From: Lunularia cruciata
Taxonomy: Eukaryota > Streptophyta > Marchantiopsida > Lunulariales > Lunulariaceae
Assembly: GCA_948567375.1 (NCBI GenBank)
Contig: OX419755.1
Span: 51,354,291-51,418,290, forward strand
DNA: 64,000 nt
Direction of reading: 5' to 3'
The position numbers and the translations under genes are program-made. Of the stretch, positions 5,750-60,500 are shown piece by piece (position 1 is the stretch's first letter; each line of letters opens with the position of its first letter). Below the pieces are notes generated by a model, which made no database searches, was not told the DNA's origin, and saw only the letters and a program-made list of their open reading frames with translations.

Positions 5750-6537
5750 GTAAGGTTGTTAAAACATCGCTATCGTTCGATTACTGTAAGGTGGAGAGGA
5801 TGAACCTGGACAGAGAGGAGCAAGTTTCGTCTTTGTGCCTCTTTCCTTTTTGTGATCGTAGGGTATATCCGATATGGTTGGCTTCTTGTACTTGCGCAGT
5901 CTTTGTCTCGTTGCGGCTTACATATTTTCTCTATCCGCTTGAGCTTTCCATTAGTATTGCATGTTTTGGAAGTCTTGTAAAGTTGTTCTTGTCTAGAGGA
6001 ACCTCTGCCGGGGTTCGTGGCGAACGTAGAGTGTATCCGCTCCACGGAATGAGCACAGCATATGCTCGGTTGGATGTTCTCATTAGACGTTGGAAGACTC
6101 CGTAACTCCTTTTATAGTTAGCTTTCCTCTTCCTTATGAATGAATATCCGCGGGACCGCTTGATCGTCATTGTATGTTGTTCGGAGGTCTTATTTGTTGC
6201 CGTGGAGTTCAGGCAGCACCTGAGAGTCTTCTCTAACTGGATCTCGCAGTGCTGCACGGGATACATTCCGATCCGAGGCTCTTCGACTGGATACATCCGA
6301 ATTTGACTGTCGCATGAGCTCCACAGATGGTGCGTTCTTCACCGATTGTCGCATTTTTCAGATGCACCACGGATCGGGGAGTCTTTTTAAGTAGCCGAGC
6401 TATTGAATTCAGCTTGCCTTGACGAAGTTTCAGGACCAATATCTCTTTTGCTCGAAATACGTTGCGAACAATCGAAAAACTCCCGAATTTGAAAGTTTCA
6501 ACCAGTCCATTGTCAAGTGAGCTTGGCAGTTGAACAG
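5750..6537 (+). other. Possible 5'-leader intron of the isomerase-kinase gene
   Basis: A good donor (atcag|gtaagg) lies at 5749/5750. A usable acceptor (gaacag|gag) lies at 6537/6538, eight bases before the ATG. The stretch between holds no recognisable coding homology, so a non-coding first exon ending at 5749 is plausible. No transcript evidence is available, and the leader could equally be unspliced. Confidence 0.3.
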
Positions 6538-6545
6538 GAGGTGCC

Positions 6546-8978
6546 ATGGGGAAAGACAAATCCTTGGAGGCCATTCGTTACGAGCGCGGTAAGTTGGAGC
6601 TTTTGGACCAGAAGAAACTGCCTCAAGAATCTGTGTATGTAGATGTCCCTGACTCTGATGCAGCATGGCTTGCCATCAAGGACATGGTGGTGCGTGGAGC
6701 ACCAGCCATTGCTGTGACTGCAGGACTAGCTCTCGCTGTGGAGCTGTTCAACCTGCAGAGCTCCTACTATGGAAATGCTAAAGATGCTGCAACCTTTATC
6801 GAGAAGCGCTTGAAGTTTCTTGTATCCAGCCGACCAACTGCCGTTAACCTTGCAGATGCTTCTGAGAAGCTTCAGAAACTGACCTCACACGCTGCAAGTG
6901 AGGAAGGAGCGAGCGCGAAGACCGTATTCAGTTCCTTTATCGAAGCTGCCGAGGAAATGCTCATTGATGATGTTGTGTCAAACAAGGCAATTGGAGAGCA
7001 CGGTGCCAAGGCGATAATTTGTTCCGTGAGGATTCAAAAAAAACTGTGTATTTTGACACATTGTAACACAGGCAGTCTGGCGACGGCCGGATATGGAACA
7101 GCCTTGGGCGTCGTTAGGTCTCTCTTTTTTCAAGGGAAGATTGAGACGGCATATTGCACAGAAACACGCCCCTACAACCAGGGGTCCCGATTGACGGCAT
7201 ACGAGCTGGTTCACGATAAAATACCGTCTGTGCTCATTGCAGATTCCGCCGCTGCATATTTGATGGCTTCAGGACGTGTTGATGCTGTAGTAGTTGGAGC
7301 TGACCGCATCGCTGCGAACGGTGATACTGCGAACAAGATTGGTACATTCAGTCTTGCACTTGCTGCAACTCAATTAGGCATTCCTTTCTTTGTTGCTGCC
7401 CCCCTCACCACTGTAGACACCCAGATACGTTCAGGGGATGAAATTATCATAGAGGAACGATCCAAACTTGAGCTCACCCATGCCTTTGGGGGTGCCGGGC
7501 CTGAAATCGCGGCCCCAGGGATTGGCGTTTGGAATCCAGCTTTTGATGTCACTCCAGCTAAGTACATCACTGGCGTGATTACGGATAAGGGAGTCGTTTG
7601 GAAGGACGAGAAAACTCAGAGCTTGGATGTTGGCAAGTTCGTCACCGGAGTTGTCAAGCCATTCGCAGGAGAAGTGTCACAGATTGCCAATCGGAATAAT
7701 GGTAGCCAAGAACCCCAAGAAACAGGGAAAAAACGTGACTATCATCCACTGGATGAGGAGGCTGCGTCTGAATATCTGGCAAAGAATCCAGGATTGGCCG
7801 AGCGATTAGGAGGTTTGTCCCAGGATTGGATCATCAAGGAGGTCGGAGATGGGAACATGAACTACGTGTACATTGTGACGGGTCCAGGAGGGTCTTTAGT
7901 TTTGAAGCAGGCTCTGCCGTATGTCAGGTGCGTAGGAGAATCGTGGTCGATGACTTTGGAACGCGCTTATTTCGAGGTGCAAGCTTTGAAAAAGGAGTAT
8001 GAATTGGTCCCAGATTACGTCCCCGAAGTGTACCATTTTGATCACCCAATGGCAATTATCGCTATGCGCTACTTAGAGCCTCCACATATAATTTTGCGAA
8101 AGGGATTGATAAAGGGAATTGTCTATCCTTGTCTTGCAGAGCATATGTCGGAGTTCATAGCTAAAACCTTGTTCCATACATCTCTTCTTGCTCTTGATAC
8201 TCACAAGCATAAAGAGGCGTCGGCTCAATCCTACGCTAACGTAGAGATGTGCAGGCTCACAGAGCAGGTCATCTTTACCGAACCTTACATGGAAGCCCCG
8301 AATAACCGCTGGACTACTCCCCAGCTAGACGAAGATGCACGAGCCATTCGAGAGGATACCCCTCTGAAGCTTGAGGTTGCGGAGTTGAAGGCCAGGTTTT
8401 GTGAAAGAACACAGGCTTTGCTCCATGGGGATTTGCACACAGGTTCGATTATGGTCACAGAGACCTCAACAAAAGTCATTGATCCAGAATTTAGCTTCTA
8501 CGGTCCTATGGGCTTCGACATTGGTGCATTTATTGCAAACCTCATTCTGGCATACTACTCTCAGGATGGTCATTCTGCAATCAAGGGGGATCGCGACGAT
8601 TACAAGAACTGGATTTTGCAGACTTTATCAGAGACTTGGGTTCTGATTGAAGCAAAATTCAAAACTGAATGGGATAGATCCTGGGATGCTCCTGGAGATG
8701 CATATGTGCCAGCCGTGTACAATACTTCGGAAACGAGAGAGTCTGCACAAAAGAGATACTTTGAGGAACTCTTTTATGATTCTCTAGGCTTCGCCGCTGC
8801 TAAAATGATCAGACGAATTGTTGGTATCGCGCATGTCGAAGACATGGAGTCAATTGCAGATGCGGATTCAAGGGCAGCGTGTGAACGCAAAGCTCTTCAT
8901 TGTGCGAAAAAGCTCATGAAAGAAAGAAAAAAACTTTCGAGTATTGCGCAAGTAGTGGATCTCGTCTCCAGTCAATAG
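6546..8978 (+). CDS. MTI1-MTK: Fused methylthioribose-1-phosphate isomerase / methylthioribose kinase, 810 aa
   Basis: One uninterrupted frame encodes two methionine-salvage enzymes. Residues 1-375 are the eIF2B-like isomerase (MTNA): RGAPAI at 50-55, THCNTGS at 171-177 with catalytic Cys173, and [10 protein letters not shown] at 251-260 with catalytic Asp253. The 80-residue Cys-Asp spacing equals that of the known family members. After a polar linker (about 376-398), residues 399-810 are methylthioribose kinase (MTNK): the nucleotide loop GDGNMN at 434-439, Lys454 in LVLKQ, the catalytic loop HGDLHTGS at 627-634 with Asp629, and DPEF at 646-649. Both halves have full family length and keep their key residues, so the protein should phosphorylate methylthioribose and then isomerise the product, both in the cytosol. 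The start sits in a good context (gtgccATGG) and begins the isomerase homology. No intron interrupts the CDS. Angiosperm versions are separate genes. The domain calls are firm; true bifunctionality is inferred. Confidence 0.95.
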
Positions 8979-54463: not shown

Positions 54464-54502
54464 ATGAACCAGAGGCGAGTTCGACGGAGGACAGAACTCT
54501 GA
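54464..54502 (+). CDS. Short upstream ORF (12 aa) in the leader of the 1471-aa gene
   Basis: An ATG at 54464 opens an Arg-rich 12-codon frame ending with TGA at 54500-54502, 34 bases before the main ATG. It would lie in the mature leader if the intron acceptor at 54441 is used. Upstream frames like this often lower translation of the main frame. Nothing shows that it is translated. Confidence 0.35.
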   Translation: MNQRRVRRRTEL

Positions 54503-54536
54503 AAGAGCAGTTTCAGACTTCTATCCGCTTATCATC

Positions 54537-57500
54537 ATGAGACTCCGGAAGGGACGCAAAGAAGTGACATGTACAGAGGTGGTGGAAACGGAGACAGTGG
54601 CTACAACTTGGAAGGAAGACAGTTATGTAGATGACGACCTTACGACTCTCCAAGATTGTTTGGATCGGCACAAGAAGGTAACTAAGCGATCCAGAAGGGC
54701 TGCAGCGACACCGTTGGATGATGAAGACATTCCCAGTGGTCGCAAGTCTAGAAAGAAATGCAAGGGTTTAGACGAAGTTATGGCAGCTGACTCTGCTCGA
54801 TCTGGAGAGCCGCTCTGCAGTCAACCAGATGGTAAGCAGACTTCACCAAATGAAAGTGGCCCCTCAAATGGTGAGGACGTTCCCGAGGGAGGCAAAAGGC
54901 GTAGGGTTAAAAAGAAAAGACGACGGAGCTCACAAGTCTCAGAAGTCTGCACAGGTAGTGTCGGGACTCCTGTCGGAATAGATTCAACCAAGACTTCTGA
55001 ACATATGAAAGATGCAGTATTTGAACCTCAGATACTCGTTGCTAAGGTAGAAATGGCCGATGATCACTCTCTTGCAAACTTGGGTGTGGATCCTGGATGC
55101 ATCGTAGGTCCGGAAATTTCCTTATTCTCTGAGCAGAACATGGACCTATCTGAGGCTTTGGAAACATTTCTTCCTGTCGACGGTTATCACACTTGCGGGG
55201 ATGCACAGAATTGCCAAACTGCCTGTCTCGAGAAAGTACTTGAGTATTTGGATAAAATGCCAGAAGCACAGCTGAGGTTTTGGTACAAGACGATATTTGA
55301 GGAGGCGTTTGCAAGCAGAAGCGGAGAGAAGGTCAGGGGGAGGCTCAGGAGAATGATCAGGAGCAAAGTTAAGGAAGTCATAAAACTGCAAAGTACCAAA
55401 GAGGTCACCAGTGACTCTTTCAGTACACTTGAGAACCAGGCAGAGGGAGATATTTCTCCTCGAAAGCTTATGTGGGGTGTGAATTATGTGGAGGAGAGTC
55501 CCGGAAGTAAGCTGTCTACGTCCAATGCGGTAGCAGAAAGCGTGGAAGCAGACAACTCCCCTTGCTCGGTCGAATCTCTATTTACGGAGCCAGACTTACC
55601 CTGTTCTCCTTCAACTATCAGCAGGGGCTTTCAACTATCAGCAGGATTGGCTTTTGAGCTTTCGCCGAGGAGCATTTCAGCCAACGAAACGTCGACCAGC
55701 TTCACCATGGGAGACTCTGAGGCAGCTGTGCAGCCGGCTCACATCCCCAACAGTCCCCGACGTTCCAGACGTAAATCCAAAAGATTGGAGAAAGCGAGTC
55801 GGGCCGCACAGGAATGTGAATCACCTAAGGACAATGTTCCGGAATGTACTCCAGAGTTGCCTCATTCAACCATGGACCTGGAAGGTGTATGCAATTCTAC
55901 ACCTTCAGTTTCTGAGATAACGCATCTCATTCCACCTGTCTCTGAGTATCGTAAACCAGCAGATACCGAAGTCGAAAAGACGAAGGTGGACAGTACAGCC
56001 GATGCTCGCCCTTGTTCTGGTAAGATCGTTGCTGTTGATAATATCCAAGAAGAGATTTCATCCTCGACCTCGGCTCACTCCAGCAGACCACACCATGAAA
56101 AGTCTGCTAGAGCTGCTAGTTTGCCATCGCAACCTGCCCTACCCTTACGACGATCAGCTCGTATAGGGGAACGAAGTGGGCGCTCTTTGTCTGACATGGT
56201 TATGATACTTGAAAGCGACAATTCGGATCACTCGAGCCGTATTCAGGTTTATTCGTCAGACAGTCAATTGCAGTCAAAGGAAACCTGTTGCAAAGCTAAC
56301 ATCAAATCTGCCGAAGCTGCACCAGGCAGCATCGAGGATTATTTCCCGTGGACTCCAAAGAAAGCATCAACTCTTCAACTACTGAAGAACTCCATTTGTA
56401 GTGTCCCGGTGGGTAGCCCAACTATGTCAGCAGGTGGATGCTTGGGAGGTACAGGAGTTGAGGTGAACGAAAGGACCGTCAGTACTATGCTTCCTACGTC
56501 GGATCACTCTCATTCCGAGGAGTCCTTCCAACCAGGAACCGAGAGTGCATCAAGTTACGGGAAGCAGGACGAACAATGTGAGGAATCCCTGAAGACCAAT
56601 GCAAAAACACACGGCCATTCAAAGATGTTTAAGGAGGCTACAACCGACATGGAATGTTTAATGGCACTTGCCAGTTTGGAAGAGGAATCTCTTGACGTTA
56701 ACGAAGAAGCAAACTGTTCATCGGAACGTCCGTACGGTCACATTTCTTCTGAAACTCAAGAAGCTAGCCATCAAACTAGATCAAGCAAGGATACCAGGAT
56801 CTGTGATGTAAGTGTCAAAGTAACAGATAAAAACCGTGCAGGTGATGAACCATGTGGCCTATCAAAATCTGTAGTGGGTACCTGTCTTGAGCCCCTTCGT
56901 GCTCCAAGCACTTCGAGCGTGGAGACCACTTCTGGGTGCAAATTCATTACGGAATGTCTGGATCATCCGGTGGAAGACGTTAGCAATGTAATCAGTTGCA
57001 TTGATTCATTGGAACGTCCAGACATAGATTCTGAGGGGTCTTGTAAATTACCAGGATGTGGGTCTAGTGCTGCAGAAATCACCTCGTGTTTGCATGTTTT
57101 GGATTCTGTTCCATGTGAGGAAAGTGCAGAATGCCAGATTCCACCATCGATCCACGGTGAAGGACTTCTTGATCTTGCATATGAAGTTCAGAGATCCGTA
57201 GAAGTCGTCGCTGAATCTGAGAGCGAACGACTCTTTGCCATAGTATCTGCTGAGAAAGTTTCCAGCTTGTGGTCATCGGAACTCGGAACTGGGTGTTCAC
57301 CGCTGGTCCTAGATGTTATCGTTTCCAACGTGGGAGGCGAGAATGGAACAGTGAAAAGCTCCAGGAAATGGGGGTTGGAGAAGTGTGGGTCCGGGAAGTT
57401 GAATTCTCAAATGGGTGCTAGTTTGATGTGCGAAACTGCGTGCTTTCCAGACGTGTGGAGAGATGCTGGGAACTCCTTGGAGCAGCCGGACGACCTGTAC

Positions 57501-60500
57501 ATGTCGGTCGGCATTTCAGATAACTGCCCATCTGACACACCCAAGAAGAGAAAGTTTCCTGATACAGATGTCGATCCCGACACGATGAAGCGCTCTGGCA
57601 TCGACCATAATCTTCTCTGCCGAGTCTCCTCAAGAACTAGGCAACGTGTGGAGATCAGCTCCACATCAGACAATGTTGCAACTTGCCGAAAGATTGTACC
57701 TGGGATTGATGTCTGTGAAGTTGCTGAAACGGAATGTTGCAAGGATGTTGCTGTCGAGCAAGATGTAGAGGAAAGTATTGAGCCTTGTATGACGAAGCGT
57801 GATTCAAATGTCGAGGTTGAAGGGATTGGTGTTTCTGAGGAACTTCAGGACCCGGGTTGCTCACAGTATGAACAACGGCAATGGGAACTTGAAATCGCAG
57901 ACGGAGGATCATCTCGTGAGGATGGAACAACATCGCAGAATGATGTCTTCGTACTGGAAGAGTCTCACGAAACCAATTTTAGATGTTCATCTCCACCTCC
58001 TTGCACGTCTTACCTCGTCGAACCGCCTCTGTGTGATTCCCCCGGATGGCTATCACCACCGGATGAGGGAGCTAGTCCTGGATCTCTAGAGACGCCTGAT
58101 GCCTGCATCAATCTGCTAACGTGCGAGCAACTTTTAGACGAAGACGATTCAGAGTACTACGAGTCCTCTAAGCTTCCGGTACTGATCAAGGTACATTTTG
58201 ACGCGTAGATTTACAGCGGACTTTTACTTACATTATCTGGTCGATCCATAACCGACCAGATTTGCCTGGTCCAGGAATTCAACTCTCTAAGTTCGTGTGA
58301 GAATGATTGAACTGATCAAACATGACTTGGTTGCAAACCACTCGTGTGTCAGATGAAGTTGGGAGGAGCGAACTGTGACAAATGGCCACCTCCAAGTCTA
58401 CCTCCAATTCGCTTGAAGCTTCCCTCTGGTCGAGCAAGTAAATACCTGAAAACCCCTCTTCATGTTTTTGGTCTTATTTTGGATGAATTGTAACGTTTCT
58501 ATAATATGCCTGCTTTAGAAATCGGCTTACATCAAATTCAAGCACAGGGGTTCCTGGGGTTAGCCACTTCGAATGGACAGTGTAAAGAAAGCTGACTAGA
58601 AGGAAGTTTAGTGAAACGAACAAGGGAATTACCGCACCACACTGACTGCTTGTCAGACAATAATTACCAGATTATGTGGACTAAACCTATTGGTAATATG
58701 ACGGGATAGTACAGAATGTAAGCGATAACTTGTACTCGAGTTGTTTTGAGGACACTTCACTACTATTTCCACCATCTTCGCTGCTTCCTGGTATACACAC
58801 GTGCCTAGCGAGCAATGAAAGCCCATTAGTGGTATCACTCGGTTCATCTCACACGAAAATTGGGTGATCAGTTAGTGTCAATGCCAACTGCCCCTTCTAC
58901 TTGAACATCTGACAGTTGTTTTGACATATCAGGACACCAGGCCAACGGATTTACCCTGTTCAAGGACAAGTCGAGTCGAGACTGGAAATATTTGGATAAG
59001 AGGGATACGGAGCGGAAAGTAAGAGCCAGTACCGAGACCTCGTCTCCCAATTCTTCTGACGAAGACATAGGTGACAACATTCCGGACGGGGAACCTGTCA
59101 CTACAAATGGTCCGCGCGATGAGCGGTCTATGCAGAAACTGTCCTTGGTTCTATCACCAACATCACCTTCGCCCCCAACACCGGCAAGTAATAGTAACAC
59201 AATAGAGAATAGTGTGAGCCCAAAAGATATCGTGCTGACGTCAACATCAAGATTTTCCAAAGGTATTCTTAAGAACAGCAGCTCACAGCCTCCACAAGCA
59301 TCACCGAAGTGCAAAGAATGTATTGAGCTGCGCTTCCAAGCCAGAACTGCTTCCGATTTTGTTGCTAGTCAAATGAAAACTTTCGGGGAGGTTGCTGGAC
59401 GGTTGACCAAAGAGATCCAAGAACTTCGATCCATTTTAGAATGGCAAGGCTCGGATCGTGACGTGTCCCAAGATGAACGGATCACAAACAAGGTATTTCT
59501 GCCCTTTTCCGATAGAATACCATAATCATTTCTGCGCGTGGTGCATGTACCGGAAGTCCATATGATTCGCAATTAGTCTTTTCCATCCATACCATGCACG
59601 CCCCTCAGCTGCTTTTCTGCAAGGCTCCTAGTTTCAAGATTGTCCGAAGTGACAAGGCCCTAGCGACAGGATAAACTCAGAACAAAACTGCTGGATTTTG
59701 CTTGTTTGGTTCTTTTATTCTGTGTATCCCGTGAGTTATGACTATAACCCGTGAGCTAGAACATCTATAAAACAACTCCCACTTAGACATCTCCACCTCT
59801 CACGTATTTGGGAATCTTGACTGAAGAGTACTTAGGAGAAGTATGAAAATAACACGTCTAATAATATTTAGTGAGAACAACTGTAAATTCTCTCCGAGCC
59901 ATTTACTTCCAAATTTCGCCTGAAACGCACGAGCACTATCATGCTGGATGAAGCTTATGTAATAATCTAGATTGTAAGTATCATGGGGTCCGACGTTCTA
60001 TAGATATAACTAACCACGTGCATGTTGCATGTCGGGACTTAGCAGCCATCATTTTAACCACAGAAAAGCAGTGTATTTGATTCCGAAGACTCATGCCTGC
60101 AGGTCAAGGCCATTTCCCGGTCGAGAGACGTTGAGCAATCTGCTGAGAAGAATCTTACTATGTTGTTACGGGACTGCAAACGGTTCTGTAAACTCACTGT
60201 ACGTACTTGTTCATTGGTTACTTCCATAAAAGCCCGTGGTTTGTGCAATTGCGACCTTGTCTTTAGCATTCAAACTTGTGAACAAGTTGGCCTCGAAAGT
60301 TGCATTCGACAGATCTACGCTGATAGATTCATGTTGCGTGTTTGTGTGCGACGTTCAATGTCCCTGACTCATCTATCTTGTTACGTGTCATGATTAGGCA
60401 AAACGTCCACGCAGAATTGTTTTTGCTGACGAAGCTGGCAAGACGCTATGCCATGTGAAGACGTTCGAGAGTCCTCCCGCGCTGGCGAGGCCCCTTTGGG

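What the first reader, a model, noticed from the sequence alone, without database searches (positions are those of the whole stretch)
6546..8978. Single-exon fusion of methylthioribose-1-phosphate isomerase and methylthioribose kinase
Two consecutive methionine-salvage enzymes, normally encoded by separate genes in angiosperms, lie in one unbroken 810-codon frame with a roughly 20-residue polar linker. All recognisable catalytic residues of both halves are kept (Cys173 and Asp253; Lys454, Asp629 and Asp646). The kinase product is the isomerase substrate, so the fusion could channel methylthioribose-1-phosphate. The order is reversed relative to the pathway (the isomerase is N-terminal). I recall, without being able to check, that an isomerase-kinase fusion has been described in a ciliate. 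A plant case would be an independent fusion, an old one later split, or a transfer. The absence of introns next to a 16-exon neighbour makes retroposition or transfer worth testing.
Basis: partly seen in the sequence, partly recalled or inferred. Interest (0 to 1): 0.85.

Follow-up and report, generated by a model that had tools for sequence, protein, structure and literature searches.

The report
Liverwort two-in-one methionine-recycling enzyme gene
A liverwort gene encodes two consecutive methionine-recycling enzymes as one protein; the same joined gene is already known from algae and a ciliate and turns up here in several groups of seedless land plants, while the conifers and flowering plants sampled carry two separate genes that look like a later split.

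Summary
Window 6546-8978 (+) is one open frame of 810 codons: methylthioribose-1-phosphate isomerase (MTI, MtnA) followed by methylthioribose kinase (MTK, MtnK), with all tested catalytic residues kept. It is not an oddity. All 120 listed relatives (of 3306 found) carry the same two domains in the same order, among them liverworts, a moss, lycophytes, ferns, a Ginkgo-type gene and green algae. The fusion was named mtnAK in Tetrahymena in 2009 and noted then in Ostreococcus, Micromonas and Phaeodactylum. The window's genome shows one copy and no separate kinase gene. Retroposition, recent transfer and assembly error find no support. Separate MTI and MTK of conifers and flowering plants nest inside the fused family, so within plants an old fusion was split later. 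The halves disagree about the Ginkgo-type gene: its isomerase groups with conifers, its kinase lies outside the sampled separate seed-plant kinases. That fits duplication followed by loss of kinase domains, but rests on one gene model and mixed statistics. Verdict: a real, intact member of a known kind; the seed-plant split is the part worth following. Channelling is untested.

The parts
6546..8978 (+). Single-exon coding sequence of the fused MTI-MTK (mtnAK) protein, 810 aa, stop included
   Evidence: one uninterrupted match in the own genome
6567..7598 (+). Methylthioribose-1-phosphate isomerase domain (residues 8-351)
   Evidence: TIGR00512 443.7 bits; PF01008; Foldseek 4ldq_A TMt 0.90
7062..7064 (+). 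Isomerase Cys173 codon (catalytic role recalled)
   Evidence: 121 of 121 fused proteins
7302..7304 (+). Isomerase Asp253 codon (catalytic role recalled)
   Evidence: 121 of 121
7656..7733 (+). Linker, residues 371-396, predicted disordered, polar
   Evidence: pLDDT under 50 for 371-396
7740..8966 (+). Methylthioribose kinase domain (residues 399-807)
   Evidence: TIGR01767 486.6 bits; Arabidopsis MTK 2pyw_A TMt 0.97, 60% identity
7905..7907 (+). Kinase Lys454 codon (ATP-site role recalled)
   Evidence: 121 of 121
8430..8432 (+). Kinase Asp629 codon, the D of the HGD catalytic loop
   Evidence: 121 of 121; motif described in PMC2194712
8481..8489 (+). Kinase Asp646-Pro-Glu648, the Mg-binding DXE motif
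   Evidence: D646 and E648 in 121 of 121; PMC2194712
8811..8816 (+). Kinase twin arginine Arg756-Arg757 (MTR-binding RR motif)
   Evidence: invariant in 65 of 65; PMC2194712

Best explanation
The gene encodes a bifunctional methionine-salvage (Yang cycle) enzyme of a liverwort. The C-terminal kinase domain phosphorylates methylthioribose with ATP to methylthioribose-1-phosphate. The N-terminal isomerase domain turns that into methylthioribulose-1-phosphate. The two folded domains are joined by a flexible linker of about 26 residues. Because this is the only kinase gene found in the genome, the fusion most likely supplies both steps at a fixed one-to-one ratio. It is the vertically inherited mtnAK fusion, most likely already present in the common ancestor of green plants, and split into separate MTI and MTK genes within seed plants. 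Shown here: architecture, residues, presence in the listed relatives, nesting in trees of hand-picked rows, a single kinase match in the genome. Inferred: enzymatic activity, one-to-one supply, flexible tethering, the date of the fusion. Channelling is a possibility I put at about 0.2.
For: Both equivalog models pass. Catalytic residues are invariant in 121 of 121. All 120 listed relatives, of 3306 found, are fused in the same order. Nearest rows in both half-trees are liverworts. Separate seed-plant kinases and isomerases fall inside the fused family with bacterial outgroups. One kinase-family match and one full-length match in 565.8 Mb. Model: two well-folded domains and a linker of pLDDT under 50, matching solved MTK and MTI. 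The fusion is published in Tetrahymena and some algae.
Against: No transcript or assay from this organism. Deep branches are unstable: in the bacteria-rooted kinase tree the root falls among open branches, with the algae in one subclade beside mosses and liverworts, and bryophyte and charophyte order differs between the half-trees. Only 120 of 3306 hits were listed, so fused relatives outside green plants and one haptophyte-named entry were not sampled and a single origin with ciliates and stramenopiles was not tested. The isomerase family model could not be run on the own genome; absence of a second isomerase rests alone.
Confidence: 0.9

Rival explanations
1. Independent, lineage-specific fusion in liverworts, or a recent transfer from an alga or ciliate.
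For: Angiosperms and conifers have separate genes.
Against: The 120 listed fused relatives include other liverworts, a moss, lycophytes, ferns, charophytes and chlorophytes; both halves place the window with Marchantia, Riccia and Calypogeia.
Confidence: 0.02
2. Artefact: two neighbouring genes joined by an assembly or frame error.
Against: Same architecture in 120 of 120 listed relatives from other data sets, some with names like de novo transcript assemblies (reading of the names is recalled); no in-frame ATG in codons 352-420.
Confidence: 0.01
3. Retrogene: an intron-bearing fused parent was reverse-transcribed and the parent lost.
For: No introns here; the name line of P0022 gives a locus of 5217 bases for 818 codons, which suggests introns (or long untranslated ends) in a relative.
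Against: No second copy, no A-rich tract within about 720 nt downstream, and none of the five short direct-repeat families found has a copy on each side of the gene. An old event would leave no such marks.
Confidence: 0.12
4. One half has a non-catalytic role (structural, or regulation like the eIF2B-related proteins the isomerase half resembles).
For: The isomerase half belongs to the eIF2B-related fold; eIF2B subunits are distant hits.
Against: It passes the cut-off of the general isomerase equivalog TIGR00512 and falls below those of the ribose-1,5-bisphosphate isomerase and eIF2B-subunit models; Cys173 and Asp253 invariant in 121 of 121.
Confidence: 0.04

Closest known systems
mtnAK of Tetrahymena thermophila (PMC2759508, Salim et al. 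2009; section 7, abstract and passages seen)
   Same: Isomerase N-terminal, kinase C-terminal; 779 aa against 810; the paper reports a cDNA clone whose two ends hit the two halves
   Different: Different eukaryotic group; whether both descend from one fusion event was not tested here
mtnAK noted in Ostreococcus tauri, two Micromonas genomes and Phaeodactylum tricornutum (same paper)
   Same: Same fusion; Ostreococcus and Micromonas are green algae, relatives of this plant (recalled)
   Different: Section 7 names no land plant and no later split
Arabidopsis MTK (2pyw; PMC2194712, abstract and passages seen)
   Same: Kinase half: 60% identity, TMt 0.97, same HGD, DXE and RR motifs
   Different: Separate single-domain gene
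MRDI/MTI (4ldq, human by recall) and B. subtilis MTI (2yvk)
   Same: Isomerase half fold, TMt 0.90 and 0.89
   Different: Not fused to a kinase in those entries
Bacterial mtnK-mtnA neighbours (Paenibacillaceae and others)
   Same: Same two enzymes side by side
   Different: Separate frames and reverse order, kinase first, in 22 of the 22 loci (of 80 fetched) in which both were found

Membership tests
mtnAK fusion (MTI-MTK) | One open frame with MtnA N-terminal and MtnK C-terminal | tested here: met
mtnAK fusion (MTI-MTK) | Expressed as one mRNA and protein | not testable with these tools
   No reads from this organism; some relatives have names like transcript assemblies
mtnAK fusion (MTI-MTK) | Common descent with the Tetrahymena and stramenopile fusions | not tested
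   No entry named as such was among the listed hits
S-methyl-5-thioribose-1-phosphate isomerase (TIGR00512) | Equivalog cut-off and conserved Cys and Asp | tested here: met
   443.7 against 279 bits; 121 of 121
S-methyl-5-thioribose kinase (TIGR01767) | Equivalog cut-off; GXGNXN loop, HGD, DXE and RR motifs | tested here: met
   486.6 against 275 bits; G434, G436, N437, N439, D629, D646, E648, R756, R757 invariant in 65 of 65; residue 628 is G in the window and in 112 of 121, A in 9
Bifunctional enzyme | Both activities measured | not testable with these tools
   Needs an assay
Retrogene | Intron-bearing parent copy, A-tract, target-site repeats | tested here: not met
   an old, decayed event is not excluded

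The most novel reading that the evidence does not exclude
The ancestral green-plant fusion was taken apart in seed plants by duplication and complementary loss, not by a single break. An early seed plant carried a full fused copy and a kinase-only copy. A Ginkgo-type lineage kept the fused copy, while conifers and flowering plants each lost the kinase domain of the fused copy and rely on the kinase-only copy, so the isomerase-only gene arose at least twice. Some gymnosperm-like isomerases still end in sequence resembling the old linker.
Probability: 0.55. Interest if true: 0.55.

Novelty: new member of a known kind. Interest (0 to 1): 0.38.

Why it matters
It extends a fusion described in a ciliate and some algae to land plants. 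It also suggests that the separate Yang-cycle genes MTI and MTK of Arabidopsis and other flowering plants are a derived state. A two-enzyme protein split within seed plants, with a possible intermediate in Ginkgo, would offer a natural test of what fusing consecutive enzymes is worth, in a pathway that recycles the by-product of ethylene and polyamine synthesis. For the window itself the gene is an ordinary, conserved enzyme.

Tried and rejected
Assembly error, independent fusion and recent transfer were rejected on distribution and trees. Operon read-through as the origin of the fusion was considered: the 22 loci (of 80 fetched) in which both genes were found all have the kinase first, the reverse of the fusion. 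Channelling was considered; the model (pTM 0.59) gives no fixed arrangement. I first thought the F-D-I..F motif after the isomerase was a relic of the linker. It overlaps a short modelled helix (362-369). It is in 108 of the 113 separate plant isomerases in which the tail pattern was found (120 searched), in 46 of 89 fused ones (121 searched), and in 1 of 72 prokaryote tails (80 searched). I therefore treat it as part of the plant isomerase, not as a scar. The residues beyond it in one group that falls with conifers in the tree resemble the Ginkgo-type linker more than shuffles do (118 and 101 of 20000 shuffles as good for two variants, 653 and 553 for two others). The four variants are near-copies and the stretch was picked by eye, so this is weak. 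Pfam on six other ORFs of the window gave nothing at E 0.01, nor did an upstream ORF at E 0.1. A paper search for the isomerase catalytic residue numbers found nothing relevant.

Full report
Observation. The frame at 6546-8978 (+) is real and complete: ATG to TAG, 810 aa. The stop-to-stop frame begins at 6534, so 6546 is its first ATG. NCBIfam equivalog models identify residues 8-351 as S-methyl-5-thioribose-1-phosphate isomerase and 399-807 as S-methyl-5-thioribose kinase, both well above cut-off. By sequence the best solved relatives are 2pyw (Arabidopsis MTK) for the kinase half and 4ldq (an MTI) for the isomerase half.

Residues. In an alignment of the window with the 120 listed relatives, Cys173, Asp253, Lys454, Asp629, Asp646, Glu648 and Arg757 are identical in 121 of 121; Gly628 of the HGD motif is alanine in 9. 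In a 65-sequence subset the GXGNXN loop (G434, G436, N437, N439) and both arginines of the RR motif (R756, R757) are invariant. The kinase motif roles come from the Arabidopsis MTK paper (PMC2194712, abstract and passages seen). The isomerase roles of Cys and Asp are recalled; a paper search for them found nothing relevant.

Structure. AlphaFold2 on 65 sequences gives mean pLDDT 89.9 and pTM 0.59; stretches under 50 are residues 1-4 and 371-396, the linker. Foldseek matches the kinase half to 2pyw_A (TMt 0.97, 60% identity) and the isomerase half to 4ldq_A (TMt 0.90). A low pTM with well-folded domains means that their relative placement is not predicted; whether product passes directly between sites is open. 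Arabidopsis MTK is described as a homodimer (PMC2194712). Assembly of the fused chain was not modelled.

Genome. The window lies in an unnamed assembly of 565,766,749 bases in 74 contigs, at C1:51354291-51418290. The whole protein has one full-length match, the gene itself, uninterrupted. The only other match is an 85-residue, 39%-identical stretch elsewhere on C1 covering query residues 202-286 (E 1.2e-6), probably an eIF2B-related exon (inference). The kinase family model has exactly one match. Such searches see a gene exon by exon, so a very diverged or finely split copy could be missed. Two pieces of an ARD (dioxygenase) gene are on C8, so a later pathway step is present. Searches for PF01048, PF00596 and the isomerase family model did not complete. 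Nearest listed proteins are liverworts: 80% to Marchantia paleacea, 75% and 74% to two Riccia species, 69% to Calypogeia fissa. The genome size resembles Lunularia cruciata, for which a paper gives about 580 Mb (PMC9985172, abstract and passages seen). That species name is a guess.

Distribution. The database search found 3306 proteins; the 120 listed all carry both Pfam domains, and in the alignment all keep isomerase-then-kinase order. Sources name Marchantia, Riccia, Calypogeia, Ceratodon, Selaginella, Diphasiastrum, Ceratopteris, Adiantum, Closterium, Chara, Volvox, Gonium, Chlorella, Trebouxia, Chloropicon, Bryopsis, Tetradesmus and Pavlova among others. P0021 (Gb_28479), P0022 (SM000001S04448) and P0028 (Chlat1) I read as Ginkgo, Spirogloea and Chlorokybus from their gene-name prefixes, which is recall; group names such as haptophyte for Pavlova are recall too. 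The other 3186 hits were not seen, and no hornwort was named. Searches with each half (120 of 7986 and 120 of 7999 hits listed) returned single-domain proteins of conifers (Wollemia kinase; Cryptomeria and Araucaria isomerase) and many angiosperms, plus unnamed entries. The only listed single-domain protein that I could name as non-seed-plant is a Selaginella entry marked partial (P0277); by eye it is nearly identical to the front of the fused Selaginella protein.

Trees. Rows were picked by hand. With 38 of 121 fused proteins and 16 of 120 separate kinases or 17 of 120 separate isomerases (midpoint root), the window sits with liverworts and the separate seed-plant genes sit among fused vascular-plant genes. 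I then rooted with bacterial sequences (kinase: 11 bacteria, 18 fused, 6 separate; isomerase: 23, 18, 6). Seed-plant separate genes again fall inside the fused family, next to or around the Ginkgo-type gene (fork uniting them 96/97 for the kinase half, 98/95 for the isomerase half). Direction is therefore fusion first, split later, within green plants. Cautions: deep branches of the rooted kinase tree are open, with the algae in one subclade beside mosses and liverworts instead of at the base; bryophyte and charophyte order differs between half-trees; and the split of bacteria from eukaryotes in the isomerase tree has only 86/91 support, where a Fluviispira protein lies near the eukaryotes.

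The Ginkgo conflict. In the isomerase trees the Ginkgo-type half groups with conifers (100/98; 100/96; 98/95). In the kinase trees it lies outside a clade of all sampled separate seed-plant kinases, conifers included (100/98; 99/95; 100/96). Holding the gymnosperm kinases together is rejected at p-AU 0.0154 (26 rows) and 0.0076 (16 rows, simpler model). Holding the separate isomerases together is not rejected in one test, p-AU 0.068 (25 rows), and rejected in another, 0.0039 (15 rows, simpler model). The groups were chosen after seeing the first trees, and unnamed rows were called gymnosperm from their place in those trees, so these p-values are optimistic. Raw identities agree. The Ginkgo isomerase half is 77-85% identical to four gymnosperm-type isomerases and 71-77% to eight angiosperm ones. 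Its kinase half is 67-69% identical to three conifer-type, 64-67% to four angiosperm and 67-68% to two lycophyte kinases, while Wollemia kinase is 68-71% identical to the four angiosperm kinases. The Ginkgo kinase half has a long end branch (0.29-0.36), so long-branch pull or relaxed evolution could contribute. The simplest reading is a duplication before seed plants diverged, followed by separate losses of the kinase domain from the fused copy. A wrong Ginkgo model or a sampling artefact remains possible, and a kinase-only Ginkgo gene was not found or specifically searched for.

Bacteria. Of the 80 loci kept by the one genome scan, 22 had a kinase frame beside the isomerase, always kinase first and as separate frames; none of the 80 showed a fusion.

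Origin of the intronless frame. No A-rich tract, no direct repeat with a copy on each side of the gene and no second copy were found. GC of the halves is 0.50 and 0.46 and GC3 0.474 and 0.472, so there is no sign of different recent sources. Whether other liverworts also lack introns could not be checked.

Literature. The fusion was described as mtnAK in Tetrahymena, with a cDNA clone reaching both halves, and noted in Ostreococcus tauri, two Micromonas genomes and Phaeodactylum (PMC2759508, section 7 and passages seen). Later papers mention it only for Tetrahymena in the passages I saw (PMC6302742; PMC3698126); the passages of PMC3143110 that I saw discuss the other Tetrahymena fusion. In my paper searches I saw no title or abstract start that reports the fusion in land plants or its split in seed plants. 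Several of those lists were cut (for example 20 of 384, 15 of 487, 20 of 682, 10 of 82), most bodies were not read, and the library lacks most subscription papers. So this is not proof that no report exists.

Verdict. Real, intact, conserved, and a member of a known fusion family. The window gene itself looks ordinary for a liverwort. The interesting part is the seed-plant split.

Noticed in passing
P0021, a gene outside the window: Ginkgo-type fused gene whose two halves have conflicting places in the trees, suggesting paralogous kinases in seed plants.
   Followed up: partly
L005 4001-5062: Fluviispira multicolorata (Bdellovibrionota) MtnA is 51% identical to the plant isomerase half and sits nearest the eukaryotes in the rooted tree; possible gene transfer with a eukaryote.
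   Followed up: no
window 54468-58208: An uninterrupted stop-to-stop frame of 1246 codons (+) with no Pfam match at E 0.01.
   Followed up: partly
L002 (own genome C1:66503391-66503636): A 39%-identical eIF2B-like stretch, probably one exon of an eIF2B subunit gene.
   Followed up: no
P0023, P0077: Two Closterium entries of 1020 and 1046 aa cover 50% and 54% of the query in one alignment; P0023 has a repeated linker stretch. Probably gene-model errors or expanded linkers.
   Followed up: no
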